Assembly: GCA_004293445.1 (NCBI GenBank)
Contig: RDYP01000012.1
Span: forward strand, 1 to 64,000
DNA from: Verrucomicrobiota bacterium
GTDB lineage: Bacteria; Verrucomicrobiota; Verrucomicrobiia; Verrucomicrobiales; Akkermansiaceae
DNA length: 64,000 nt
Reading direction: 5' to 3'
Part shown: piece by piece, positions 27,329-43,949 of the stretch
Layout: each line of letters opens with the position of its first letter
Numbering within the stretch: the first letter of the stretch is position 1
Made by a program: the position numbers and the translations under genes
The notes under the pieces: model-generated
Database searches by the model: none
What the model was told of the DNA's origin: nothing
Seen by the model: only the letters and a program-made list of their open reading frames with translations

Positions 27329-29935
27329 ATGAAACGTATTGCCACCGGACGAAAGTCCATCCGAGTCACTCGCCTGTCGAAGCAGGCGCTGCTTGCCACT
27401 GCCTTGGCGTCTGCCATGGCTTCACTCTCCGCCCAAGCCCAGCTGGCGGTGGCGGAGAACATCCTCGTTGACCTCCGTGCTACCCAAGGCTCGGCTGGTA
27501 CCGCGACTTGGTTCAATCGTGGCGTTGCCGGGAACTTCTCGGTGGTCAGTGGGACCCCTGTGAAGCAGAACATCGGCGGCGTCGACTATGTCACGATGGA
27601 TCCCACTACCCAGTACGTCGGGCCGGTCGCGCCTCCGACGGTGACCGGTGCCGACACCCGCACGGTGGAGGTTTGGGTGAAGAACGATGTCGTCAACAAT
27701 GAGGACATCATGATCGCCTGGGGCAAGCGGGGTACCAACGGCCGCAACTACGCTTTCACCTACGGGACCCAGCCGGCCTGGGGTGCGCTCGGAGCTTGGG
27801 GTGGCGAGGACCTTGGCTGGGGCGCGGTGCCTGCGGCGGCAACGCTCCACCACTTGGTCATCACCTACGACGGCGCGACCACGAAGCTCTATTCTGATGG
27901 TGTATTCATCAATTCCGAGTCCCTGCCGCTGAACACCTTCAACGATCCCTGCAATTTCATCCTCAACGGAGGTCGGGAGGGCGACAACAGCTCAATTCAG
28001 CGTCCGAACGTCGGCAATCTGGACTACGCGGTCATTCGCGTTCACGCCGGGGCTTTGAGCGATACTCAGATCGCGGCTAATTACGCCGCCGGAGTTGGCG
28101 GGGATTTCGCGGATGCGGATGCGGACGGTCTGCCGGACTTCTGGGAGGACTACTATCTTTTGGACAAGAATGACAACGGCGGCACCAACGCGAATTTCGG
28201 TGCCTCCGGGGACCCGGACAGCGATGGTCTAACCAATCTTCAGGAATACGAAGGTGGCACCGCGCCGGTCAACGATGGGGACTTCGACGGCCTCGACGAC
28301 AACTGGGAGATCTCCAACTTTGGAAATATCGGTGCCCAGAATGGGGCGGGCGACCCGGACGGCGATCGCGATGATAACGCTGCGGAATTTGCAGCGGACA
28401 CGGATCCCAACGATCGGACCAGCCATATCGACACCGATTCACCTGTGGACGGAATTTCTGATGCTTGGGAGGAATTCTACTTCCCTGGCGTCGGCACGCT
28501 GGCGACCGACGACGACGATCTTGATGGCCTTAGCAGCTTGGAGGAGTTCCTCCGCGGCACCAATCCCAACGATCTTCTTTCCAATGGAGAAGCCGATGGC
28601 GATGCCGATAACGACGGCTTGGACGATGCTTGGGAGCGCCTGTATTTCACCAATGTGGTCGCGCAAGGTGCGGCTGGCGATCTCGACCTCGATGGCGCGA
28701 GCAACCTTGCCGAATACAACGCGGCCTCAAATCCAAACGTCAGTGCCTCTACCCCGACCGACGTCAACGGCGACGGGCAGCCCGACACGGTGCTGAACCT
28801 GCCCTTCACCGCGCTGGGCAGCGGCGGCATTCTCGACGCGACGGGCGAGGCCACTGGTTTCACCACCCGCCTCCCGGGCACCGGAGCCGCGCTGGCGACG
28901 CCGAACGACGCGAACCTCGACATCGACACCGCGAGCGGCCTGCTCAACATCACAAGCACGACGTCGGACTTCAACGGTCAGGTTGGTATGAATGTCGCCG
29001 AGGCCTTCGGTATCCAGCTTTCCTCGCTCGGCTTCACTGGGACCGAGGATCTGCTGGTCCGCGCCAAGTTCGTCGATTTGCCCGCCTTGGCGGGCTTCGA
29101 CCAGATCGGTGTCTATGCGGGCACGGCTTCTACTGCCGTGGTGCGCGGCGGGCTCATCAATCTCGGATCTCGCCAAGCCTACGCGGCTAACACCAATGGC
29201 GGCGGCGACTCCGGACAGACCTTCGTCCCCACCGGCGTGCTGGGTGTTGGTGTCTCGATGACCGTCGAATTAAAGCGCATCGGCGGCGTTTGGTCGCTGG
29301 TGGTGAATGGCGTCAATGCGACTCCGGGTGTCGCTCCTGCATTCCTCGATACTGCCACCGACCTCAATGTCGGAGTCTTCCACGCTGACGTCCAAAGCGG
29401 CACGCAGGTCGCCAAGCTCGAGAGCTTCACGGTCGTTCGCTTCGGATCGGCCGTGGTCAACCTCGACTCCGATGAAGACGGTTTGGCCGATGCGTGGGAA
29501 GAAGCGAACTTCGGTGCGGGTATCCTGACCCAGTCCGCCAGTGGAGATCCCGATGGCGACGGTCTCGACAACCTCTATGAGTTCGCTTTCAACGGCGATC
29601 CTAACAGTTCGTCTGACAATGCTGTGATTGCCTCGGCCTATGCCGACTCGAACGCCAACACCAACAAGGATCTCACCATTACCATTCCCGTGCGAACCGG
29701 GGCGACCTTTGCGGCCGCTGCTGGCAAGCAGACGGCGGAGGTGGAGGGCATCACCTACACGGTGGAAGGTTCCGTCGACTTGACGGCCTTCGACAGCGCC
29801 GTTGCTTTCGTTGGGAAGGCCGACTCGAACGATCCAGATTACGAACTGCATACCTTCCGCCTGACCGCATCCGATGCGCCGGGAGCAGCGAAAGGTTTCT
29901 TGCGCGCCGTTGTTGCCAAGACTCCCGCACCTTGA
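27329..29935 (+). CDS. secreted LamG and calcium-repeat protein
   Basis: An 868-residue exported protein. A signal peptide with a basic start ends near ALASAMASLSAQAQ (about 37). A LamG/concanavalin-like domain covers about 40-250 (VEVWVKNDVVNNEDIM, LHHLVITYDGATTKLYSDG). Then come several thrombospondin type-3-like calcium repeats with DADADGLPDFWEDYY, DGDFDGLDDNWE and DSDEDGLADAWEEANF, separated by a second beta-sandwich of about 200 residues (PTDVNGDGQPD to FTVVRFGSAVVNLDS). The C-terminus is a beta domain common in verrucomicrobial exoproteins. No PEP-CTERM motif or barrel is seen. Likely a cell-surface or released carbohydrate-binding or structural protein. The ATG at 27329 follows an AT-rich leader. 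Confidence 0.85.
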   Translation: MKRIATGRKSIRVTRLSKQALLATALASAMASLSAQAQLAVAENILVDLRATQGSAGTATWFNRGVAGNFSVVSGTPVKQNIGGVDYVTMDPTTQYVGPVAPPTVTGADTRTVEVWVKNDVVNNEDIMIAWGKRGTNGRNYAFTYGTQPAWGALGAWGGEDLGWGAVPAAATLHHLVITYDGATTKLYSDGVFINSESLPLNTFNDPCNFILNGGREGDNSSIQRPNVGNLDYAVIRVHAGALSDTQIAANYAAGVGGDFADADADGLPDFWEDYYLLDKNDNGGTNANFGASGDPDSDGLTNLQEYEGGTAPVNDGDFDGLDDNWEISNFGNIGAQNGAGDPDGDRDDNAAEFAADTDPNDRTSHIDTDSPVDGISDAWEEFYFPGVGTLATDDDDLDGLSSLEEFLRGTNPNDLLSNGEADGDADNDGLDDAWERLYFTNVVAQGAAGDLDLDGASNLAEYNAASNPNVSASTPTDVNGDGQPDTVLNLPFTALGSGGILDATGEATGFTTRLPGTGAALATPNDANLDIDTASGLLNITSTTSDFNGQVGMNVAEAFGIQLSSLGFTGTEDLLVRAKFVDLPALAGFDQIGVYAGTASTAVVRGGLINLGSRQAYAANTNGGGDSGQTFVPTGVLGVGVSMTVELKRIGGVWSLVVNGVNATPGVAPAFLDTATDLNVGVFHADVQSGTQVAKLESFTVVRFGSAVVNLDSDEDGLADAWEEANFGAGILTQSASGDPDGDGLDNLYEFAFNGDPNSSSDNAVIASAYADSNANTNKDLTITIPVRTGATFAAAAGKQTAEVEGITYTVEGSVDLTAFDSAVAFVGKADSNDPDYELHTFRLTASDAPGAAKGFLRAVVAKTPAP

Positions 29936-29947
29936 CCCTGTCACAGT

Positions 29948-29981
29948 GACCCCCGGGGATTTTTTCCTCGGGGGTCTTTTT
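29948..29981 (+). terminator. Rho-independent terminator after the secreted protein gene
   Basis: The stem GACCCCCGGGGA pairs with TCCTCGGGGGTC (one G-U) around a TTTT loop, followed by TTTTT. It begins 12 bp after the stop codon and separates this gene from the halogenase, so the two are probably not one operon. Confidence 0.85.
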
Positions 29982-31752: not shown

Positions 31753-34700
31753 ATGTCTTTGAAAATCCCCCTCATTGTCTTCTCGTTCTTGTCGTTGATT
31801 TCGCCCGCGCTGTGCCAGCAGGTGACACTGGATCCATCAACGCCCTTGGTCGCTGGCTACTGGTCCGGTGGTGAATGGGAAAGCGCTGGCAATGCCGATG
31901 GCTGGACGACTTCTTCCGTAGCTAACACGGTCGTGGCGGGCGGCGTGATCTCGGGCAATTCTAGTAGCGCTGATCCGGTTTTATCGCGGATAGCCATCGC
32001 TACCGATTCCCAGCCCGATCTGGATCTAGGGTTCAATGATTTCGTCGAATTTCGTCTCCAGCTTCCGGCGAGCTACAATGGAAACATCGAGCTCTTTTTT
32101 GGTGTGACTGATGCCGGTGTCGCCTCTCAGACCGGTTTCAGTGCGAATCGTTCGGTGACCGTGCCGAATAGCGTGATTCCCCGGGATGGGGCCTTTCACA
32201 CCTACCGCATCGACATGGGCACCGTCCCGATGTGGCGAGGCTACTTGCGCGATATCCGGCTCGATCCGGCGACGGTGAGCGGCACTCTGTTCTCTCTGGA
32301 TTATCTTAGGGTGGGCGACACCGAAGGTGATGTTTACCAGCGCAATACCATGGACCAGCCCGATGCCGGGGCATACGAACTGAGCTCCAAGCACGCTCGC
32401 TTCATCTGGAATGCTTCCCGCGCTAGTGAGTTCGCGATGAACGCGTCGTGGGCGCGCAAGAATCTTCGTAATTTTGAGGAAGCCTGGCAGATTTACGTGA
32501 AGCAGTATGGCTATCAAGAGCCTGCCGAAAGCGTCGATCCTGCCAAACGCATCGCCTATCCCGGCAAGTGGAAGGTCAACTTTCTCTGCATCTACGACGG
32601 ATTCTGGATGGGCGGTAGCGTGAATTCCTTCGGCTACATGAACATGCACCCCGGTGGTTTGCGCGCAGATCCTCCCGGTTGGGTGGTGCCCCACGAACTG
32701 ATGCACGTGTTTCAGATGCACCAAGGTGGTGGCTTCGCCAACAATGCGCCGATGGGGAAATGGTGGGAGGGTCACGCCAACTACGGTCGCGAAGCGTGGC
32801 TGAACAGGATGTACAAGCATTTCGATGCCGATCCGGCGGCGTGGACCGATACCGCGTTACCCCTCATCCGTTCGACCAATCTTTTCCACAGTCATGGCAT
32901 CCACTATTATCATGCTTGGCCCATTTTCCAGTACCTCGATGAGAACCCCGACAACCTGCCTGACCTTGGCATGGCATCGGGTCCTTCGTCGCGCGCCTTC
33001 TCCGCACGCCTTTGGCGCGAGTCCGGTTCCGGAGAGTATCTCTACAACACACTCGAACGCCTCACCCCTGAAACGTCGCTCAAGGATGCAATCGGCTATT
33101 TCGCACGTCGCCAAGCCACCCACGACTATTCGAATCAAGCCGACACCAAGGTGGCGCTTGCGAACAGGGACCCCGAGTTGACCGGCCGCCAACAAATCAC
33201 CGATCTGTTCCGCCGCGCGGACGATCCGGGGTGGTGGCAGCCCTATCCCGCGTCGCTGCCAATGGCTTTTGCCTTCGCGACCCACGAACTTGTGCCTGCG
33301 GGCAGCGGTGCCGGTCGGGTGGTGAGCGTGAATCTCCGCGGCCACGTCAATCCGGAACGCCAGTCCGACTGGCGGGCTTCGCTGGTGGTCGTCAACGACA
33401 GCGGTATCGAGCGCTACTCGTCGCTCTGGAGCAGTGGGACGAACTCGGTCACGCTCGCGGCCAACGAGAACAAGGTCTATCTCAGCGTCGCCGCCACGCC
33501 CGGTGAGGTGGTTCCCACCCTGCACCTCGACCAAGACCAACCGTACGTCAGCCACCCGGGACGCGAGCGTTTTCCTTATGAAATTCAAGTCACCGGAGCG
33601 ACACCCAAGGGGGCGGGCAGCGGCAGCGCAACGATGCTGGTCCACTCGAATGGTGGTGGCCTGAAAGCAAGTACTGCAACGGTCGAAGCCGGCGCTTATC
33701 TCGGCCCGAATGCCCGTGTGCTCGACTACGCAGTGGTCCGTGCCGGTGCGCGAGTTGAGGACCAGGCGATCGTGAGCGGTCATGCCATGTTGCGCAACGG
33801 AGCAGTGGTCCGTGGCCATGCCCGCATTCGGGAATATGCCAACCTCGAGGCCTGCGATGTTTCAGGCAACGCCCGCGTTGGAGGTCACGTCTTGCTTTTT
33901 GGAAATGCGACCGTGCGCGACAATGCCACGGTCAAAGGCGTGGGCAATCTCTCCCGGGCCGATGCCAATGATTACGTCGGTGGCGATGCCGTGCTGGATG
34001 GCGATTGCATCAATGCCCAGACCATCATCAATGGTTTTCACTTCGGCTGGGAATGGGGCGGCTTGCAGGATGGGACCATTGCTTCCAAGACATCGCCCGC
34101 TGCACTCTTCGCTCGTTACGAGTTTCCTAGTAATCATGCCTACGCGGCAAAGGACAAATATGGCGCCACCGATGCCTTGCTCGTCGGTGCTCCGACCTGG
34201 GTGGCGAGCGATGCCACGCGCAACGGCTTCCTCACCTTCAACGGATCTGGACAGCATGTTTTACTCAGTCGCTGGCTTGGTGATATGCGCGCCACATCCA
34301 TCACCGCTCAGGTCAAATGGGCTGGAGGTGCCGCAAATCAGGCTCTTTTCCAGTTGGGCGACGGCAGCACCACACGTCGCCTTCACGTGACCCCCAGCAA
34401 TGGCTCTGGCGTTTGCGAGCTTAGGATTGTCCATGGGGCCGATACTTACAGTATCCCCGCCAATGCAGCCTTACCCGTTGGGACTTGGACCCGGGTTGGG
34501 GTGACCCTTGATGGAATCAACGCCAAGCTCTACCTGAATGGCGCTCTCGCTGGCACCGCATCCTGTACGGTGCGGCCGGAGGATCTGATGCCAGCGGATA
34601 CGAATGAAACTCCAGCATACAATTTCATCGCCCGGGGCATCGGCTTGCTCGATTTTCAGGGTTCGGTCGATGATTTCACCGTTCACTCCTCCGCCTTCGA

Positions 34701-37700
34701 TGGCCTCACTGGCCTCAGCATTCAGGCACTTTCTCCGAGCATCACGGAAAAAGGCGATCCTGTGAGCTTTCGCATCACCCGTCAGAGTCTCGACAATGCC
34801 CCTTTTCCGAATCCCCAAGTGGTCAGCTACAGTGTCGGTGGCAGTGCGACTCCCGGAGCGGACTATATTACCCTAAGCGGTAGCGCGACCATTCCGGCGA
34901 ATGCCAACAGCGTCGATATCGTCGTGACGCCCGTCATCGATGCCCTCGTCGAATCCACCGAGACCATCACCGTCACTTTGAATTCCAGCACGGACTACGG
35001 CCTTACCGGCACGGGTAGTGCGACTCTCGATCTGATCAATAGCAGTGATCTCTCCGCCAGCTTGCTTGCTTGGTATCGCTTTAACGAGAGCGGTGGCAGC
35101 ATTGCCGCGGATTCCAGCGGCAATGCGAGGGACGCTACCCTTGTCGGCAATCCGAACTGGCTGCCAGCATCACAAGGTTTATCCTTTGATGGTTTGAACG
35201 ATGACGTTCAGACTTCAGTGTCGAGCGGCACTGCTCGCACTTTGTCCGCGTGGATTTTTCCCCGCAGTTCCGACCCGACGCCTTTCATTGAAAGTGTCTT
35301 CGATACCGATGTGCCCGGACAATATGGAACAGGCTGGGGCCTCGCGGGAGGAAAGATCCGGGTGATCCTCGACGATCAATTCTGGGATACCGATGTGGCC
35401 GTCACCTTGAACCAGTGGCAGCACGTCTCGCTGAGCTTTGATGCGGTTTCCGCTCGCGTGTATCTCAACGGCGTCGAGGCCGCGAATCTGAGCTACACTC
35501 AGGGTTGGGTCGATTCCGCCAACTACCGGATCGGTCGTAGCAATGCCAATGCGGAGTTTTTTCATGGCGACATCCGTGAGGCGAAAATCTTCGACCGTGC
35601 GGTATTCTCTGCCGAGGCTGCAGAGATTTATGCGGGCGATCCGCCGGCCCCGACGCTGTCACCGCGCAATCTTACCGCCATCGCCGACAACAGCGGTGTG
35701 GCGTTGCATTGGCAAAGGGCCGATGCCGGTGAGACCGGATACTCGGTCCGTCGTTCGCTTGTTAGCGGCGGTCCCTATACGGCTCTGGCGAGTGGAATCA
35801 CCGCGACCTCGTACCGAGATAACAATCTGAGCAACGGTACGACCTACTACTATGTGGTTGCTGCGACTTCCGACTTCGGCAGTGGACCTGTTTCGAATGA
35901 GGCGAGTGCGACACCCGGCGGCAATGCGCCTCCTCCCCAGTGGGTTCAAGCCAATGTCGGCGGTGCCGCTGGTTCTCCCACTACGACCTTCAGCGACAGT
36001 CGGTTCTCGGTGAATGGCGCGGGTACCCGTATTTCCAACGGCAGCAATACGGCGACCGATTCCTTTCGTTTTGTCTACATCCCACTGGTCGGCGACAGCA
36101 CGGTGACGGCTCGCGTTCTTGCCCTTGGCAGTACCAACGCCGCTGCCAAGGCCGGGGTGATGATTCGGGAGTCTCTGGCCGCGGGTTCGCGCCATGCGTC
36201 CACTTTACTAAGCCCCGCGACGATGGCTTTGATACGTCGTGCGAACACCGACAGTAACGCCGCGAGCGGCACCACGGCCAACGCGATCAGCCAGCCTTGG
36301 CTGCGTATCGTCCGCTCTGGCCAGACCTTTGCGTCTTTCTACTCTGCGGATGGTAGCAACTGGGTCCAAATCGACGTGGACCGGGTGGTCGCGATGTCGA
36401 ACTCGGCAGTGTATTACGCCGGTCTTGCGGTCTGTTCGGGAAATGCCACGGCTCTCAGCAACGCGGTTTTCTCCGAGGTCAGTATCACCGGTGGCCATCC
36501 GACGGGCGTCACCGCTACCGCTGGAAATGCGAGCGCGACGATCGAGTGGTCTCCTGTAGCCGGCGCTGCATCCTATCGCGTCAAACGCTCACAGTTCAGC
36601 GGTGGACCATACGAGATCGTGGGCGATGAAGTGACCGCCACGACTTTCAACGACGCTGCGCTCGTGAACGGAAGCACTTATCATTACGTCGTCTCCGCCC
36701 TCAACGCCAGCCTGGGTCAGTCGTTGGATTCGCTGCAAGTGAGTGCCACGCCCGCGCCACCACGGCCTCCCGTTCCACTCAATCCCGCGGCGAGTCCCGA
36801 TCATCGTCGCGTTTTTCTCACCTGGGATCACGTTTCGACCGCCAGTGGTTATCTTGTCCGGCGGGCGACTGCCAGCGGCGGCCCCTACACCACTGTTGGC
36901 AGCCCCGGCGGAAGTTCCTTCACCGATACCGGTCTCTCCAATGGGACGAGCTACTACTATGTGATTGTTGCTTACAATTCCGGGGGGGAGAGTCCTGCCT
37001 CCACGGAAGTCAGTGCGACGCCCTCTCTCTTCTCCAATGACGGAACGTGGAGCAGCGCTTCCGGTGGTGATTGGGATGAGCCTGCAAACTGGCTCGCGAG
37101 CACGATCGCGGTCGGCACGGATCGGATTGCAAGTTTTCCGCAGGGTGGTGGTTCCGTTATGCAAAACATCGCCGGTCTCACCCTCGGGAACTTGAGTTTC
37201 GGGGGCGGCAGCTCGACCCTCGCTGGTAGCGCGATTACGCTGGATCGTAGCAGCGGAACGCCGGAAATCGCGGTTGCTGCGGGCGCTTCCGCCAGCATCG
37301 ATCTCGCTTTGAATGGCAGCGACGGCCTGGTGAAGACCGGCGATGGCACTCTTGTTCTCCAGGGCGCTTCCACACCCGGTGGAGCGGCGACGATTTCCGC
37401 CGGCAATCTCACGCTGCGTGGTGGCTATGCAGCTGGTTCCATGAATGTTGCCGCCGGTGCCTTGCTCCAGCTCGACAACGTGGCGGATCGCGATTTCGCA
37501 TCGATCACTTTCACTGGTGCCGGCACTCTGCGTAAGAGCGGTACTGGCCGCAGTTACTGGGGAGGGAATGCCGCGACCTTTGCCCTTTCCGGCGGCTCGC
37601 TGATCGATGTCCAGGAGGGCGTTTTTACGGCGGGATCGAATGCCAATGAAAACTGGACGGATAACCGATCTGATCTGCACGTCGCTTTCGGCGCGGTGTT

Positions 37701-39924
37701 CAATACGGTGGAAGCCAATGTCCGAATCGACCGCATCACCGGTGATGGTGCCATCGGCACCGGATACTCTGGTGCGGGTTATCAAAATCTCAGCATCGGT
37801 ATCGGAGATGGCTCCAGCCGATTCGACGGGGTGATCTCAAACACCGACAATAATCCATCCTTCGTCGGCAGTTTGGTCAAACTGGGATCGGGTACGATCA
37901 CCCTGACCAATAACTGCACCTACAGCGGTGGCACCAGCATTGTAGCCGGAACGCTTGAGCTTGGAGATGGCACGTCGGGGAAGGATGGGCGTTTGGCGAA
38001 CACCAACGGAGTGACGAACAACGGAGTCCTCGCTTTCAATATCCACGGCAACCAAAGCGTCCTTCATCCGATCAGTGGGAGCGGCAGCGTTCGGAAGGAT
38101 GGCCAGGGTGAGCTCAGTTTCACGAGTAATCATTCCTACGGCGGAGGCACTAGTATCGAGCAGGGTCGCCTCATCCTCGACGGTGCCAGTGGCGGGAATG
38201 GGAGAATCCGTGGTAGTGTGGTCGTTCGGGCTGATGCCGAGCTTCGGGTCAGCGCTGGTGATGGAAGCGGACTTGGCTACAATGGCGGCGCGAAAGTCGA
38301 TCTCCTTCACCTCGATGGCGGGCTGTTGAATTCTCCTGGCGTCTGCCATTTCTGGCAAGCCGGGCTTCAGATGACCGGCGGTGAGTTCCGTGGCAACAAC
38401 GCCATCAACGATCCCGGCGGCCCCTACTTCGAATGGGGAAATAGCAGCGTCACCACTTTCGCCAGTCCAAACGCTTCTCTCATTTCCGGGCGTATTCGCA
38501 TCCGTCCGGATGCCAGCCCTTGGTTGGTCATGAATGTCGCTGACGGCCCCGTGACCAACGACCTGCAAGTGGGCGCCGCACTCACTGAGGCGTCTGCCGG
38601 AGCGGGGATTCAGAAGCATGGCGCCGGGACGCTCGCGCTGAGGGGATCGAACAGCTACAGCGGTGTAACCCTAATCGCAGGCGGTGTGTTGAATGCGGCC
38701 GATCTTGGCAATTACGGGCAAGTCGGCAGCCTCGGTAACCGAGCTTCGGATTCGTCCGGCAATGTCGGCCTGCTTTTTCGTGGTGGCACCCTGCAGTATA
38801 CCGGTGCCAGCGCACAATCCACCAACCGCGCGATCCGAGTGAGTACCAGCGGCGGTGCGATTCTCGATGCTTCGGGTAGCAACCCCTCCGCCACGGTCGA
38901 TTTCACCGCAACGGCGTCGCCCGATTTCTTCGAAAATCCGGGAGATCGATCCCTGACCTTTACCGGTAGCAATTCCGGTCTAAACCGATTTGCCATGGCG
39001 ATCGGTGAGGCGGGCGGGATGACTCGGGTGACCAAAACCGGGAGTGGCACTTGGGTTCTCGCCGGATCTAACAGCTACAGCGGTCCAACCGAGGTGAATG
39101 CGGGCAAGTTGTTCGTTCAAGGCCAACAAAACTCGGCTACTGGGAGTATTACGGTTGCCGCGGCTGCCACTCTTGGCGGTAGCGGTAGCGTCGGTGGCGG
39201 TATTCTAGTGCAAGCTGGCGGCACCCTTGCTCCAGGAATGACGATCGGGACCTTTACCGCACCTGCCGCCAGTATCGGGGGCACGCTGGCGATCGAGCTC
39301 GATGGAAGCAGTGCCGATTTGCTCGATGTTTCCGGCGCGCTCGATATCGCTTCTGCGAGCCTCGATCTCACGGGCAGCATCACCGCGAGTGAACTTGTCA
39401 TTGCCCGTTTTGGTAGTCTGAGCGGATCATCTTTCGCCGCCGTGAGCGGGCTGCCCGCCGGCTACGAACTGGACTATGATCTCGTTGGGAAGCGCATCGT
39501 CCTCCGTGCTGTGGCAGAGGACTTCGCGGCGTGGATCGATGCCTTCGCCGTGAGCGACCGCGGGCCTGAAGCGGATCCTGACCATGACGGTATTTCGAAC
39601 GCGCTGGAATATGTCTTGGGCGGCGATCCTGCGGTGAGTTCTCGAGACGGACTGCCTTCGATATCGATTGTCGGTGATCATTTGGTTTTTTCCTTCAATC
39701 GGTCGGATCGATCGGAAAGCGCCGATCTGAGCCTCTTCGTCGAAGCAGGCAGCGACCTCGCCACGTGGCCTGAGGTCTTCACGGTTGCCGCTACTGGCTC
39801 GCAGTCGTCGTCCGGGGTCGGCATTCAGGAAAATGGTGACGCCGCCGACCTAGTGGTCGTTAGCATCCCTCGGGGTGAGACGGCGCTCAAGTTTGCTCGG
39901 TTGCGGGTCGTCATTGCCCCGTGA
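31753..39924 (+). CDS. giant modular secreted protein with HELMH metallopeptidase motif and beta-strand repeats
   Basis: A 2723-residue exported protein. Signal peptide 1-21; a DUF6055-like peptidase region (about 60-500) with HELMH at 314-318 and a downstream WWEGH (337-341) that could give the third zinc ligand; hexapeptide-like beta-helix (about 647-765, GNARVGG and GNATVRDNATVKG); LamG (about 786-982); Calx-beta (about 988-1096); second LamG (about 1103-1296); FN3 (about 1302-1390); a DUF1349-like sandwich (about 1393-1577); two more FN3 (to 1758); then at least five autotransporter-associated beta-strand repeats (1763-2467; e.g. TRVTKTGSGTWVLAGSNSYS). The end carries a verrucomicrobial DPDHDGISNALEYVLGG domain. 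No C-terminal barrel or PEP-CTERM is visible, so it is not a classic type V autotransporter. Confidence 0.92.
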   Translation: MSLKIPLIVFSFLSLISPALCQQVTLDPSTPLVAGYWSGGEWESAGNADGWTTSSVANTVVAGGVISGNSSSADPVLSRIAIATDSQPDLDLGFNDFVEFRLQLPASYNGNIELFFGVTDAGVASQTGFSANRSVTVPNSVIPRDGAFHTYRIDMGTVPMWRGYLRDIRLDPATVSGTLFSLDYLRVGDTEGDVYQRNTMDQPDAGAYELSSKHARFIWNASRASEFAMNASWARKNLRNFEEAWQIYVKQYGYQEPAESVDPAKRIAYPGKWKVNFLCIYDGFWMGGSVNSFGYMNMHPGGLRADPPGWVVPHELMHVFQMHQGGGFANNAPMGKWWEGHANYGREAWLNRMYKHFDADPAAWTDTALPLIRSTNLFHSHGIHYYHAWPIFQYLDENPDNLPDLGMASGPSSRAFSARLWRESGSGEYLYNTLERLTPETSLKDAIGYFARRQATHDYSNQADTKVALANRDPELTGRQQITDLFRRADDPGWWQPYPASLPMAFAFATHELVPAGSGAGRVVSVNLRGHVNPERQSDWRASLVVVNDSGIERYSSLWSSGTNSVTLAANENKVYLSVAATPGEVVPTLHLDQDQPYVSHPGRERFPYEIQVTGATPKGAGSGSATMLVHSNGGGLKASTATVEAGAYLGPNARVLDYAVVRAGARVEDQAIVSGHAMLRNGAVVRGHARIREYANLEACDVSGNARVGGHVLLFGNATVRDNATVKGVGNLSRADANDYVGGDAVLDGDCINAQTIINGFHFGWEWGGLQDGTIASKTSPAALFARYEFPSNHAYAAKDKYGATDALLVGAPTWVASDATRNGFLTFNGSGQHVLLSRWLGDMRATSITAQVKWAGGAANQALFQLGDGSTTRRLHVTPSNGSGVCELRIVHGADTYSIPANAALPVGTWTRVGVTLDGINAKLYLNGALAGTASCTVRPEDLMPADTNETPAYNFIARGIGLLDFQGSVDDFTVHSSAFDGLTGLSIQALSPSITEKGDPVSFRITRQSLDNAPFPNPQVVSYSVGGSATPGADYITLSGSATIPANANSVDIVVTPVIDALVESTETITVTLNSSTDYGLTGTGSATLDLINSSDLSASLLAWYRFNESGGSIAADSSGNARDATLVGNPNWLPASQGLSFDGLNDDVQTSVSSGTARTLSAWIFPRSSDPTPFIESVFDTDVPGQYGTGWGLAGGKIRVILDDQFWDTDVAVTLNQWQHVSLSFDAVSARVYLNGVEAANLSYTQGWVDSANYRIGRSNANAEFFHGDIREAKIFDRAVFSAEAAEIYAGDPPAPTLSPRNLTAIADNSGVALHWQRADAGETGYSVRRSLVSGGPYTALASGITATSYRDNNLSNGTTYYYVVAATSDFGSGPVSNEASATPGGNAPPPQWVQANVGGAAGSPTTTFSDSRFSVNGAGTRISNGSNTATDSFRFVYIPLVGDSTVTARVLALGSTNAAAKAGVMIRESLAAGSRHASTLLSPATMALIRRANTDSNAASGTTANAISQPWLRIVRSGQTFASFYSADGSNWVQIDVDRVVAMSNSAVYYAGLAVCSGNATALSNAVFSEVSITGGHPTGVTATAGNASATIEWSPVAGAASYRVKRSQFSGGPYEIVGDEVTATTFNDAALVNGSTYHYVVSALNASLGQSLDSLQVSATPAPPRPPVPLNPAASPDHRRVFLTWDHVSTASGYLVRRATASGGPYTTVGSPGGSSFTDTGLSNGTSYYYVIVAYNSGGESPASTEVSATPSLFSNDGTWSSASGGDWDEPANWLASTIAVGTDRIASFPQGGGSVMQNIAGLTLGNLSFGGGSSTLAGSAITLDRSSGTPEIAVAAGASASIDLALNGSDGLVKTGDGTLVLQGASTPGGAATISAGNLTLRGGYAAGSMNVAAGALLQLDNVADRDFASITFTGAGTLRKSGTGRSYWGGNAATFALSGGSLIDVQEGVFTAGSNANENWTDNRSDLHVAFGAVFNTVEANVRIDRITGDGAIGTGYSGAGYQNLSIGIGDGSSRFDGVISNTDNNPSFVGSLVKLGSGTITLTNNCTYSGGTSIVAGTLELGDGTSGKDGRLANTNGVTNNGVLAFNIHGNQSVLHPISGSGSVRKDGQGELSFTSNHSYGGGTSIEQGRLILDGASGGNGRIRGSVVVRADAELRVSAGDGSGLGYNGGAKVDLLHLDGGLLNSPGVCHFWQAGLQMTGGEFRGNNAINDPGGPYFEWGNSSVTTFASPNASLISGRIRIRPDASPWLVMNVADGPVTNDLQVGAALTEASAGAGIQKHGAGTLALRGSNSYSGVTLIAGGVLNAADLGNYGQVGSLGNRASDSSGNVGLLFRGGTLQYTGASAQSTNRAIRVSTSGGAILDASGSNPSATVDFTATASPDFFENPGDRSLTFTGSNSGLNRFAMAIGEAGGMTRVTKTGSGTWVLAGSNSYSGPTEVNAGKLFVQGQQNSATGSITVAAAATLGGSGSVGGGILVQAGGTLAPGMTIGTFTAPAASIGGTLAIELDGSSADLLDVSGALDIASASLDLTGSITASELVIARFGSLSGSSFAAVSGLPAGYELDYDLVGKRIVLRAVAEDFAAWIDAFAVSDRGPEADPDHDGISNALEYVLGGDPAVSSRDGLPSISIVGDHLVFSFNRSDRSESADLSLFVEAGSDLATWPEVFTVAATGSQSSSGVGIQENGDAADLVVVSIPRGETALKFARLRVVIAP

Positions 39925-41654: not shown

Positions 41655-43949
41655 TCACTTCAGCTCCGGGGCGGTCCAAGGGCGTCCGCTGCGCGCCTTG
41701 GTCGCTTCTCGCTGTCTTGCGACCTCGGTCGCTTGCACGGCGCTGGCCTTGTTGGACCATTCGTTGCGGATGTAGGTGGAAATGTCGGCGAGCTTTTGAT
41801 CGGTGAACATGGGGTTCATTCCGAGCGCGGGCATGTCGGCACTGGGGCGGTAGGTTTGGCCATCGACGGTGACAGGGCCGGTCATGCCGTGGAGGAGGAT
41901 TTTGACAAGGGTTTCGGGTTTTCCGGTGACCCATTCCGAGTGGTCGAGCGGTGGGCCGAGGGCTTGCACGCCGGAGCCATCGGGCCCGTGGCAGCTGAAG
42001 CAAACGGCCTCGCCCGCGTAGAGTGCTTTGCCGCGTTTCCAGGATTCGAGCTCGGCGCCCTTGAGTGTGGGGCCCTTGGGTGCCTTGGTGGCGGCATTGC
42101 TTGTGCCTTGGTCAAGCCATGCGATGAGGGCCTTGTCTTGGGTTTTGGCGATGGATTTGAAGGCGGCTTCGTGACCGTGCAGACCGGAGATGGCGGCTTC
42201 GCGGACGAAGCGGGCGGCGGGCTTTTGATTCAGCAGGCGGGCGAGGGCTTCGAGGGCGTCGTTGCTGCCGACGCTGCCGAGGGCTCGGGCGAGGTAGGGA
42301 TCGGCCTCGGGTGCGGTGGGCGAGAGTGAAGCGAGGCTTGTGGCGAGCTTCGCGCGTTCCATGGAGTCGAGGCCCGCCACGGCCCAGAGGGCCGAAGACT
42401 GCACCTTGGGGTGCTTGTTTTTCAGTGCGTCCGAGAGGTGGCTTGCTTGGAGTTTTCCCATGCCTTCGAGTGTCCAGATCGCGTGCACGCGGGCGACGGG
42501 GTTGCCCCGGGCTGCGAGGGTCGCGAGGTGGGGGATACAGGAGGCATCGGCGCGCTGGACGAGAACCCGCTGTGCGGTTTCGCGGTGCCAAGCATTCGGG
42601 TGGGCGAGCATTTTGACGAGCTCGAGGCCTTGGAGCGCGCCGATATCGATCTTCGGTTCGAGTTTTCCCGAGCTACTACGGATCCGGTAGATGCGTCCGT
42701 GTCCGAAGCCCGGTTTGTCGAGTCCGCGGGCGAGGTGTTGCTGGCGGAGGTAGCTGGTCTGGTAGGTCTTGTGCTGGATGATGCCGTGATACATGTCGAC
42801 CACGTAGAGCGATCCGTCGGGTGCGGTGTAGGCATTGACCGGGCGGAAGCGTTCGTCGGTGGAGGCGAGGAATTCCTTTTCGCCGAGCGGGTGACTGCCG
42901 GATTGTTTGCCGTCCTTCTCGCTGATGCGGATGGCCTTGACGAGGTTCGCGGCGGATTCAGTGGCGAAGCCGTGGCCATACCAGTCTGACGGGAAATTGG
43001 TGCCGCGATAGAGGGTGAGGCCGGCGGCGGCGGTGCAGTTGATGAGTTTGTGGGTTTTGGGGTCGAGGGTTTGTTCGCGGTAGCCGTTCGACTTGGCCAT
43101 GTAGGCGCGGTTGATTGCCGGTGTCACGCGGATGGGCCAGGTGCGGTTGCTGCCGAGGGCGTTGCCGTCTTGGTATTTCGGCTTCACCGCGGGATTGCCG
43201 GTGAGGAGGTTGGGCGCGAGGCTCTCGCCGAAGAGGAAGGCGGAGTTGTGGTTGTGATAGAGGCGGCCCCAGTCGTCGCGTGCGATGCCCCACTGGCCGC
43301 GGAAGAAGGTGGGTTCGATCTTCCACGAGCCGTTCACCCGGCGGATTCGCTTGTTGGATTTGGCGAGGTAAAGCCAGTTGTCGAGATTGGGCATCAGGCC
43401 GTTCGGCTTGTGTTCGACGTTCCCCCCGCCATTGAAATTACCGTCGATCACCTCGGGGACACCGATCGCTTTGAGTCCGTCGCGCTTCGCCCACAGGAGT
43501 CTGTGTTCGTCGAGGAAGAGGATGCCGTCGTCGAATACGGCGAGCGCGCGGGGTAGTAGGACTTTGTCGAGAAATACAGTACGGTGCTCGGCCTTGCCGT
43601 CGCCGTCGCGGTCTTCGAGCACACTGATCCGGCCTTCGGGAATGTTTTCGCCTTTGCCGTCGATGTCGGGCATGTAGCCACGCATTTCGCAGACCCATAT
43701 CCGTCCGGCGGGATCGAAGTCGAGGCAGACGGGTTTTTCGACGAGGGGTTCGGTGGCGACGGCTTCGATGATGAAGCCAGGCGCGAGTTGGAAGCTTTCG
43801 AGTGCTTCGGCGGGGCTGAGGACGGGGGAGGGCGGGATGAGATTTTCGGGGACGACGGCGGCCATGTTGCCGTGCTCCTTGCGGTCGCCTTGTTGGGCGG
43901 CGAGCGGGAGGAGGCAGAGCGACGAGCTGAGGAGAAGTCGGAGGCGCAT
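41655..43949 (-). CDS. secreted PVC-type beta-propeller/HEAT/haem c protein
   Basis: A 764-residue exported protein (signal MRLRLLLSSSLCLLPLAAQ). The order is: a dehydrogenase-like beta-propeller part with DFDPAGRIWVCEMRGYMPDI, LEDRDGDGKAEH (calcium-like loop) and TAPDGSLYVVDMYHG (about 60-420); HEAT-like helical repeats (about 450-620, e.g. MLAHPNAWHRETAQRVLVQR); and a cytochrome c domain with CFSCH at 650-654 and MPALGMNPMF for the Met ligand. This architecture is common in Planctomycetes and Verrucomicrobia as putative membrane-bound dehydrogenases; the substrate, often assumed to be a sugar or alcohol, is not known. The redox role is inferred from the haem site. Confidence 0.85.
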   Translation of the reverse strand: MRLRLLLSSSLCLLPLAAQQGDRKEHGNMAAVVPENLIPPSPVLSPAEALESFQLAPGFIIEAVATEPLVEKPVCLDFDPAGRIWVCEMRGYMPDIDGKGENIPEGRISVLEDRDGDGKAEHRTVFLDKVLLPRALAVFDDGILFLDEHRLLWAKRDGLKAIGVPEVIDGNFNGGGNVEHKPNGLMPNLDNWLYLAKSNKRIRRVNGSWKIEPTFFRGQWGIARDDWGRLYHNHNSAFLFGESLAPNLLTGNPAVKPKYQDGNALGSNRTWPIRVTPAINRAYMAKSNGYREQTLDPKTHKLINCTAAAGLTLYRGTNFPSDWYGHGFATESAANLVKAIRISEKDGKQSGSHPLGEKEFLASTDERFRPVNAYTAPDGSLYVVDMYHGIIQHKTYQTSYLRQQHLARGLDKPGFGHGRIYRIRSSSGKLEPKIDIGALQGLELVKMLAHPNAWHRETAQRVLVQRADASCIPHLATLAARGNPVARVHAIWTLEGMGKLQASHLSDALKNKHPKVQSSALWAVAGLDSMERAKLATSLASLSPTAPEADPYLARALGSVGSNDALEALARLLNQKPAARFVREAAISGLHGHEAAFKSIAKTQDKALIAWLDQGTSNAATKAPKGPTLKGAELESWKRGKALYAGEAVCFSCHGPDGSGVQALGPPLDHSEWVTGKPETLVKILLHGMTGPVTVDGQTYRPSADMPALGMNPMFTDQKLADISTYIRNEWSNKASAVQATEVARQREATKARSGRPWTAPELK

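What the first reader, a model, noticed from the sequence alone, without database searches (positions are those of the whole stretch)
31753..39924. 2723-residue protein joining a zinc peptidase motif to adhesion-type and PATR domains
HELMH at 314-318 with a later WWEGH gives a credible metallopeptidase site; behind it come a hexapeptide beta-helix, two LamG, Calx-beta, three FN3 and at least five autotransporter-associated repeats, without a barrel. How it leaves the cell is unclear. Together with the neighbouring LamG protein, halogenase homologue and small anchored protein it may form a surface-degradation or adhesion locus.
Basis: partly seen in the sequence, partly recalled or inferred. 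Interest (0 to 1): 0.6.

Follow-up and report, generated by a model that had tools for sequence, protein, structure and literature searches.

The report
Likely glycopeptidase with a shared tail
A bacterium of the phylum Verrucomicrobiota encodes a giant, probably exported protein whose front end looks like a known sugar-guided protease and whose last 130 residues are a so far uncatalogued end-piece shared by dozens of its other probably exported proteins, perhaps an address label for leaving the cell or sticking to its surface.

Summary
In detail: window 31753-39924 encodes 2723 residues with HELMH and WWEGH (gluzincin site HEXXHX(20)E), a hexapeptide helix, two LamG, three FN3 and five PATR stretches, and no barrel. 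The front is a signal peptide, a carbohydrate-binding-like jelly roll, and a DUF6055 peptidase plus left-handed beta-helix, the two-domain plan of the Svx extensin peptidases. Foldseek's best rows are M60 O-glycopeptidases. HExxH is present in 61 of 61 related loci. 'How it leaves the cell' has a candidate answer: the last 130 residues are a calcium-loop plus immunoglobulin-like module that sits at the very end of 37 of 39 own-genome ORFs carrying it. It matches 134 of 194 sampled genomes of the phylum and 112-115 places in three further genomes, and has no Pfam or NCBIfam model. Its passengers include hydrolases and adhesion-type proteins. In six of eight adjacent gene pairs tested, this tail and a PEP-CTERM sorting tail sit on copies of the same head. 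I read it as a C-terminal sorting or anchoring domain that works like a type IX CTD but is not a member of that family by the tests run. Secretion was not tested. The proposed locus with the neighbours is not supported.

The parts
31753..31815 (+). Sec signal peptide (MSLKIPLIVFSFLSLISPALC)
   Evidence: positive residue, then hydrophobic core and small residues (heuristic); cleavage site read by eye
31852..32325 (+). N-terminal jelly roll like a carbohydrate-binding module (residues about 34-191)
   Evidence: AF2 model m5fe1b78d7da2; VIA-align rows to CBM-bearing chains Z 10.5-12.4, top row on this part a phage baseplate chain, Z 13.8; Foldseek CBM28, CBM11, CBM27 and CBM86 rows
32455..33612 (+). 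Svx-type gluzincin peptidase domain (DUF6055, residues 235-620)
   Evidence: PF19527 E 6.5e-34; NF040510 Svx/AvrXca 116.8 bits; Foldseek top rows ZmpB, ZmpC, BT_4244 and IMPa
32692..32706 (+). zinc-binding HELMH (H314, E315, H318)
   Evidence: invariant in 45 of 45 rows
32761..32781 (+). glutamate helix WWEGHAN with third ligand E339; N343 corresponds by counting to Pba Svx N171
   Evidence: E339 45 of 45, N343 43 of 45; the scan pattern contained this motif, so not independent; E339 is also invariant in the 6 of 6 rows
33661..34053 (+). left-handed beta-helix (hexapeptide, 'acyltransferase-like' Svx domain, residues about 637-767)
   Evidence: Hexapep 648-681 below cut-off; model; VIA-align Z 13-16 to LbH acyltransferases
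34150..34707 (+). LamG-like domain 1 (approximate)
   Evidence: one of two Laminin_G_3 stretches; borders read by eye
34819..35025 (+). Calx-beta-like (sub-threshold)
   Evidence: PF03160 17.4 bits, cut-off 27
35224..35616 (+). LamG-like domain 2 (residues 1158-1288)
   Evidence: PF13385 best stretch
35659..35907 (+). FN3 domain 1 (residues 1303-1385)
   Evidence: PF00041 best stretch
36247..36489 (+). DUF1349-like stretch (sub-threshold)
   Evidence: PF07081 24.5 bits, cut-off 32.4
36520..37023 (+). FN3 domains 2 and 3 (approximate)
   Evidence: fn3 three stretches; titin FN3 match 1595-1748
37030..39486 (+). PATR beta-helix region, at least five repeats
   Evidence: PF12951 and TIGR02601, five stretches each; borders approximate
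39487..39921 (+). C-terminal shared tail (CTD): W ... DPDHDGISNALEY ... FSFNR ... VEAGSDLATW ... KFARLRV ... stop
   Evidence: 37 own-genome members; no Pfam/NCBIfam hit at E 0.1 for this member; AF2 pLDDT 94.3, pTM 0.87
29453..29935 (+). the same CTD at the end of the neighbouring LamG protein

Best explanation
The protein is a Sec-exported, cell-surface or secreted Svx-type glycopeptidase of a Verrucomicrobiota bacterium. A carbohydrate-binding-like jelly roll and the left-handed beta-helix bring glycan-decorated proteins to a zinc site (H314, E315, H318, E339) that cuts them next to O-glycans. The LamG, FN3 and PATR parts are a long adhesive spacer. The last 130 residues (calcium-loop helix pair plus seven-strand immunoglobulin-like sandwich) are a sorting tail. 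The cell uses this tail on dozens of exported proteins, hydrolases and adhesins among them, to take them across, or fix them to, the outer membrane or surface polysaccharide, in place of an autotransporter barrel or a PEP-CTERM anchor. Shown by sequence or model: homology to Svx, the intact metal-binding motif, domain order, the CTD family, its C-terminal position, its spread in the phylum, and pairs of like heads with CTD or PEP-CTERM tails. Inferred: catalysis, glycan dependence, substrate, and that the CTD acts in sorting or anchoring. The outer-membrane route (the genome has a type II-like gene cluster, the route of Svx in Pectobacterium) is a guess.
For: Peptidase: PF19527 and NF040510 matches. 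Motif HEXXHX(20)E inside the published HEXXHX(8,28)E (PMC9266454). Top Foldseek rows are M60 O-glycopeptidases ZmpB, ZmpC, BT_4244 and IMPa, E 2e-8 to 3e-7. By counting from the motif, Svx sugar-site residues W136 and N171 are W310 and N343. Tail: 37 of 39 own ORFs with a stop carry it within 12 residues of the end; in 20 other genomes, one best hit each, 19 of 20 within 12 and 20 of 20 within 16. Signal-peptide-like starts in 17 of 19 own and 17 of 19 other CTD ORFs with complete 5' ends (one more, 16 residues from its stop, was outside that count and had none), against 17 of 51 control ORFs (lenient heuristic). 134 of 194 phylum genomes. Among genomes holding Svx loci, 9 of 10 Verrucomicrobiota by title (2 to 115 matches, cap 115) against 4 of 24 from other phyla or unplaced (1-3 weak matches). 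Passengers with hits: GH78 rhamnosidase, GH16 with CBM, GDSL lipase, PATR, PL8 lyase, reprolysin-like, cadherin, LamG. Tail pairs: in six of eight adjacent pairs tested the heads are 64-80% identical over 190-700 residues, one copy with CTD, one with PEP-CTERM.
Against: No experiment. The protein is far below the NF040510 equivalog cut-off (116.8 against 625 bits), and PF13402 (M60) was not reported. W310 is kept in only 10 of 45 rows and G137 is V311. The M60 Foldseek rows have low TM (0.14-0.20) and rmsd of 20 A or more; among the 50 VIA-align rows shown, those on the peptidase part are M1 aminopeptidases (Z 10.5-11.1), not M60. Two own ORFs carry a CTD-like stretch more than 500 residues from the end. 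The tail is optional for Svx relatives: of 14 Svx ORFs with a stop in loci titled as Verrucomicrobiota groups, 4 end in it. Of 19 CTD proteins scanned, 5 had no Pfam hit and 5 only PATR at E 1e-5. No machinery that reads the tail was identified; the T2SSJ against CTD association (35 of 38 against 99 of 156, hand count, Fisher p 3e-4) is confounded by ancestry, and that search missed the own genome. The tail pairs were seen only in this genome, not in the other loci at hand; in one of the six the PEP-CTERM score is just under the cut-off (20.2 against 20.7 bits).
Confidence: 0.6

Rival explanations
1. The C-terminal module is not a sorting signal but a terminal carbohydrate- or calcium-binding adhesion domain, kept at the end of secreted proteins for function (for example binding the cell's own exopolysaccharide or a substrate).
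For: Immunoglobulin-like sandwich, with CBM21 rows (7qfa) among weak Foldseek hits; calcium-type DxDxDG loop; several passengers are carbohydrate-active.
Against: End position in 37 of 39 own ORFs and 20 of 20 others, 112-115 places in three genomes, varied passengers, and PEP-CTERM on copies of six heads are the marks of a sorting tail rather than of a binding module, which would be expected in any position.
Confidence: 0.25
2. The N-terminal domain is a non-catalytic glycoprotein-binding relative of Svx; the giant protein is an adhesin.
For: Large adhesive part; the closest relatives found (46-50% identity) are uncharacterised.
Against: All three zinc ligands and the catalytic glutamate kept in 45 of 45 rows; Svx relatives with this kind of site are active peptidases (PMC9266454, PMC10815107: first of seven parts of each read, and section 2.4 of the former).
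Confidence: 0.1
3. A classical type V autotransporter whose barrel is encoded apart or lost.
For: PATR repeats are typical of autotransporter passengers (model names).
Against: One PF03797 match in the genome, on another contig, against 37 CTD proteins; PATR repeats here sit in CTD-tailed proteins, and PEP-CTERM-tailed neighbours match their PATR parts.
Confidence: 0.03
4. Assembly chimera or mis-called giant ORF.
For: Draft assembly in 49 contigs.
Against: The own-genome paralogue (1804 aa) and MAG homologue L062 have the order Svx - LamG - PATR - CTD, and L063 is similar in length with the same tail.
Confidence: 0.02

Closest known systems
Svx/AvrXca peptidases of Pectobacterium, Dickeya and Xanthomonas (NF040510; PMC9266454, PMC10815107, PMC13164431)
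   Same: Peptidase domain with HEXXHX(n)E followed by a left-handed beta-helix acyltransferase-like domain; signal peptide; ZmpB among the best Foldseek rows, as published for Svx.
   Different: Extra N-terminal jelly roll, about 1950 residues of LamG/FN3/PATR and a C-terminal tail; X(20) instead of X(22); well below the equivalog cut-off; substrate unknown.
M60 O-glycopeptidases (ZmpB, BT_4244, IMPa)
   Same: Top Foldseek rows; two-helix gluzincin zinc site; glycan-guided cleavage is assumed, not shown.
   Different: PF13402 not reported by sequence (Pfam hits to E 1); an LbH domain follows; VIA-align rows shown on this part are M1 aminopeptidases.
Type IX secretion C-terminal domains (PMC11285876, abstract and section list read)
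   Same: Last domain of secreted proteins; immunoglobulin-like seven-strand sandwich; many copies per genome (the last point recalled).
   Different: Preceded by a helix-calcium loop-helix; no T9SS tail model among Pfam or NCBIfam hits; Verrucomicrobiota, not Bacteroidota; SprA_N not found, but that search had no ringing control.
PEP-CTERM/exosortase tails (PMC1569441, passages read)
   Same: C-terminal tail on many diverse exported proteins, 65 in Verrucomicrobium spinosum according to that paper; here found on copies of the heads of CTD proteins.
   Different: PEP-CTERM is a short motif-TM-basic tail; the CTD is a folded 130-residue domain without a TM helix.

Membership tests
Svx peptidases | peptidase (DUF6055-type) plus left-handed beta-helix domain in that order | tested here: met
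Svx peptidases | zinc motif HEXXHX(8,28)E | tested here: met
   X = 20
Svx peptidases | NF040510 equivalog score of 625 bits | tested here: not met
   116.8 bits whole protein, 123.2 bits for 780 N-terminal residues: a relative, not an equivalog
Svx peptidases | sugar-site residues W136, G137, N171 | tested here: inconclusive
   W310 and N343 kept, G137 is V311; mapped by counting from the motif
Svx peptidases | extensin cleavage, type II secretion | not testable with these tools
   needs protein and strain
M60 (PF13402) | sequence match to PF13402 | tested here: not met
   not among Pfam hits to E 1; HMMER's filters drop most matches above about 0.1
M60 (PF13402) | fold of the catalytic domain | tested here: inconclusive
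   top Foldseek rows are M60 structures, E 2e-8, low TM; not among the 50 VIA-align rows shown
Type V autotransporter | C-terminal beta-barrel | tested here: not met
   no barrel family in the protein; its end is the CTD
T9SS cargo CTD | match to Pfam/NCBIfam T9SS tail models | tested here: not met
   no such family among the hits of 37 CTDs at E 0.1; that both libraries hold such models is recalled
T9SS cargo CTD | immunoglobulin-like seven-strand sandwich at the C-terminus | tested here: inconclusive
   seven strands in the model, Ig-like rows Z up to 8.5; no T9SS CTD chain among the rows shown
T9SS cargo CTD | SprA translocon in the genome | tested here: inconclusive
   no PF14349 match, but no control genome rang
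PEP-CTERM | PEP motif, TM helix, basic end | tested here: not met
   the protein ends ...KFARLRVVIAP

The most novel reading that the evidence does not exclude
The CTD is the recognition signal of an undescribed outer-membrane secretion or surface-attachment pathway used by much of the phylum Verrucomicrobiota: a folded calcium-loop plus immunoglobulin-like tail that is functionally parallel to, and separately evolved from, the type IX CTD. The organism keeps paired copies of the same binding head on this tail and on the exosortase PEP-CTERM tail.
Probability: 0.35. Interest if true: 0.85.

Novelty: new variant of a known kind. Interest (0 to 1): 0.6.

Why it matters
How Verrucomicrobiota move giant enzymes to their surface is poorly described in the papers seen here. 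A single tail that marks dozens of exported proteins would give a handle on the secretome of the phylum, a search key for its machinery by phylogenetic profiling, and an expression tag. It also extends Svx glycopeptidases from plant pathogens into modular surface proteins of other bacteria.

Tried and rejected
Amuc_1099 link: 11 of 37 CTDs matched NF042425 weakly. In seven CTDs scanned singly, four matched, over 25-32 residues at the acidic loop only, so I dropped it. T2SS co-occurrence: PF11612 found 38 of 194 genomes, 35 of them CTD-positive, but missed the own genome whose GspJ-like gene hmmscan does find; too insensitive and confounded. SprA search: no match, no control rang. PEP-CTERM/CTD head sharing in other genomes: none in the loci at hand (where the loose tail pattern also picked up non-PEP-CTERM frames); L063 has a PEP-CTERM gene just after its Svx gene and L136 one just before its CTD gene, without shared heads. 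Neighbour conservation: none for halogenase or small protein. Foldseek on the CTD gave only weak, mostly Ig-like rows, best E 7e-3; T9SS CTD structures were not among the rows shown. Print: ten library searches, several with only part of the hits listed, showed no description of this CTD. One search found the three Svx papers, one paper that mentions DUF6055 (not opened). This is a statement about those searches and their listings only.

Counts with caveats: the scan pattern required the WExHA motif, so conservation of E339/H341 in those loci is built in; HExxH is not. In one search about 20 candidates per genome were scored, about 115. A3 (45 rows) holds the window, the paralogue and 43 of the 56 stretches printed, which had dropped 10 of the 66 ORFs (fragments and truncated ones). 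A1 holds the 37 of 54 domain matches that reached model position 120 or beyond within 10 residues of a stop, so its C-terminal position is by selection; the unselected count is 37 of 39 ORFs with a stop (5 more ran off their stretch). The 20 other genomes are 20 of the 21 with the best hits listed; one (G082) was left out by oversight. Strong hits only were looked at. Of 14 PEP-CTERM frames compared (13 over the cut-off plus one at 20.2 bits; four weaker ones left out), the script placed 6 directly after a CTD gene; two more overlap one by 140 and 184 bases by hand reckoning, and one precedes a CTD gene. Six control genomes gave PEP-CTERM matches at E 1, none over the cut-off. Nine adjacent pairs exist by these counts; eight were tested, since the tail pattern missed the one in L152.

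Full report
Observation. The ORF at 31753-39924 is open over 2723 residues. No barrel was reported. The N-terminus reads as a Sec signal peptide (heuristic).

Front end. The NCBIfam model NF040510, Svx/AvrXca, matches in three stretches (116.8 bits, cut-off 625). The Svx papers (first of seven parts of each read; passages and section 2.4 of PMC9266454) describe a gluzincin peptidase domain, an LbH acyltransferase-like domain and, in the 2026 abstract, cleavage of extensins with the LbH critical for recognising arabinan. The window protein has the same order. Its motif is HEXXHX(20)E. In six aligned proteins H314, E315, H318, E339 and H341 are invariant. A genome scan returned 61 loci, and HExxH lies in the Svx region of 61 of 61; the scan pattern itself required the WExHA stretch, and three of the loci appear to be the ones that helped to build it. 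In a 45-row alignment H314, E315, H318, E339, Y386, W421, D458 and R541 are among the invariant positions. The AF2 model (pLDDT 77.9, pTM 0.81) shows a jelly roll, then HEXXH and glutamate on two consecutive helices, a beta domain and the LbH. Metal geometry was not measured. The best Foldseek rows are M60 O-glycopeptidases, with low TM and high rmsd. Among the 50 VIA-align rows shown, CBM-bearing and some other chains (top a phage baseplate chain) lie on the jelly roll, LbH acyltransferases on the helix and M1 aminopeptidases on the middle. Pba Svx sugar-site residues W136 and N171 fall on W310 and N343 by counting, G137 on V311. W310 is kept in 10 of 45 rows, N343 in 43 of 45.

Paralogue and relatives. 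The same genome has a second copy, C21:38647-41514, 46% identical over residues 17-983, in a 1804-residue ORF with LamG, PATR and the same tail. PF19527 matches were found in 16 of 194 phylum genomes, 5 over the cut-off, so the peptidase is uncommon in that sample. MAG homologues L062, L063, L069 and L113 also end in the tail. Ten other Svx ORFs with a stop in loci titled as Verrucomicrobiota groups (L061, L064, L076, L077, L087, L089, L090, L092, L099, L101) do not match its model. The tail is thus optional for the peptidase.

Tail. The last 141 residues hit 46 other places in the own genome in a search to E 10, 30 of them at E 0.001 or better. Iterated on ORFs of fetched stretches and selected for full length near a stop, the module ends 37 proteins within 2-10 residues of the stop (alignment A1: invariant W16, D34, E41, L91, F136). 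No Pfam or NCBIfam family covers it: the window member has none at E 0.1; 6 of 37 touch TSP3_bac, 11 of 37 touch Amuc_1099 and single members touch other families weakly, the Amuc_1099 match being the acidic loop. The AF2 model is confident (pLDDT 94.3, pTM 0.87): a helix, a DxDxDG-type loop, a helix, and seven strands. Foldseek gives only weak, mostly Ig-like rows (best E 7e-3; VIA-align Z up to 8.5).

Spread. With A1, 134 of 194 sampled genomes of the phylum, the own one included, match at E 0.001. Of 35 genomes that hold Svx loci, nine of ten Verrucomicrobiota by title have 2 to 115 matches (115 is the scoring cap; three have 112-115), the Lentisphaerae one has two weak ones, and of 24 from other phyla or unplaced, four have 1-3 weak ones (best 1.9e-7). 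In 20 genomes near the top of the list, one best hit each, the module is 0-16 residues from the stop in all 20. Signal-peptide-like starts were scored in 17 of 19 own and 17 of 19 other ORFs counted by the script, against 17 of 51 control ORFs of the window; the heuristic is lenient and the control set includes spurious and perhaps exported ORFs. Passengers scanned (9 of 37 own; 10 of 20 other): five carry enzyme domains (GDSL lipase, GH78, GH16 with CBM, PL8, reprolysin-like), five only PATR, four other extracellular-type or repeat domains (cadherin/PA14, LamG, PQQ/REJ, BNR/sortilin), and five had no hit at E 1e-5.

Tail pairs. The genome has 13 PEP-CTERM frames over the cut-off. Several sit directly after a CTD gene. 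In six of eight adjacent pairs tested the two neighbours share their heads: 78% over 200, 80% over 212, 66% over 240, 79% over 700, 64% over 274 and 78% over 190 residues. One ends in PEP-CTERM, the other in the CTD; for the first of these the PEP-CTERM score is 20.2 bits, just under the cut-off. Of the other two pairs, the one in L151 shares nothing, and the second PEP-CTERM neighbour in L153 matches at 42% over 269 residues, a part that also matches other PATR proteins. Of ten matches between different loci one reached 50% identity. Homologues with different functional tails were also used as an argument for GlyGly-CTERM (PMC3237569, passages read). I take the pairs as the strongest hint that the CTD is a sorting tail. 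They were not seen in the other loci at hand.

Route. The genome has four secretin matches. One, at C1:285 kb (GspD model 289 bits, cut-off 351), lies with a T2SSJ gene over its cut-off and with GspL- and GspM-like genes that score below theirs, a type II-like cluster; another is the Amuc_1098/1099-type pilus cluster. Svx of Pectobacterium uses type II secretion (PMC9266454). A paper on a Verrucomicrobiota isolate suggests type II export of alginases and counts 67 pseudopilin homologues (PMC13274419, passages read). Whether the CTD is read by this system is unknown.

Neighbourhood. The LamG neighbour carries the same tail. A 12-pair terminator-like hairpin stands between it and the halogenase, in a scan whose number of sites was below chance. 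The halogenase and small protein were not found beside the 61 Svx loci or the paralogue, whose flanks are often short. I therefore do not support a joint locus.

Verdict. The peptidase is a new, modular relative of a known family. The uncatalogued tail, widespread in the phylum, is the more interesting part. It works like a type IX CTD or a PEP-CTERM by its anatomy, is a member of neither by the tests run, and its role is inferred.

Noticed in passing
own genome G000: loci L021, L149, L150, L153, L154, L155: Adjacent gene pairs share a head domain (64-80% identity) but end in different tails, one PEP-CTERM, one CTD. A possible matched set of anchored and differently sorted binders.
   Followed up: partly
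L021:8570-13855 (G000:C21): The Svx paralogue carries inside it (979-1193) the same head module as the neighbouring PEP-CTERM protein, 44% identical.
   Followed up: no
window 29948-29976: Terminator-like hairpin (12 pairs, T tail) between the LamG gene and the halogenase gene.
   Followed up: no
L061 and L064, last 90 residues of the Svx homologues: By eye, the tails resemble the beta part of the CTD (an aromatic-W stretch, then RFFR near the end) without the acidic loop; perhaps a shorter variant of the same tail.
   Followed up: no
window 41655-43949 (-): DUF7133 - HEAT - cytochrome c protein, unrelated to the finding.
   Followed up: no
L054 and L059 (G000:C2, C17): Two ORFs hold a CTD-like stretch more than 500 residues before the end; frame errors or true internal copies were not told apart.
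   Followed up: no
L063:14727-15638: A PEP-CTERM gene follows the Svx-CTD gene directly in this MAG.
   Followed up: no
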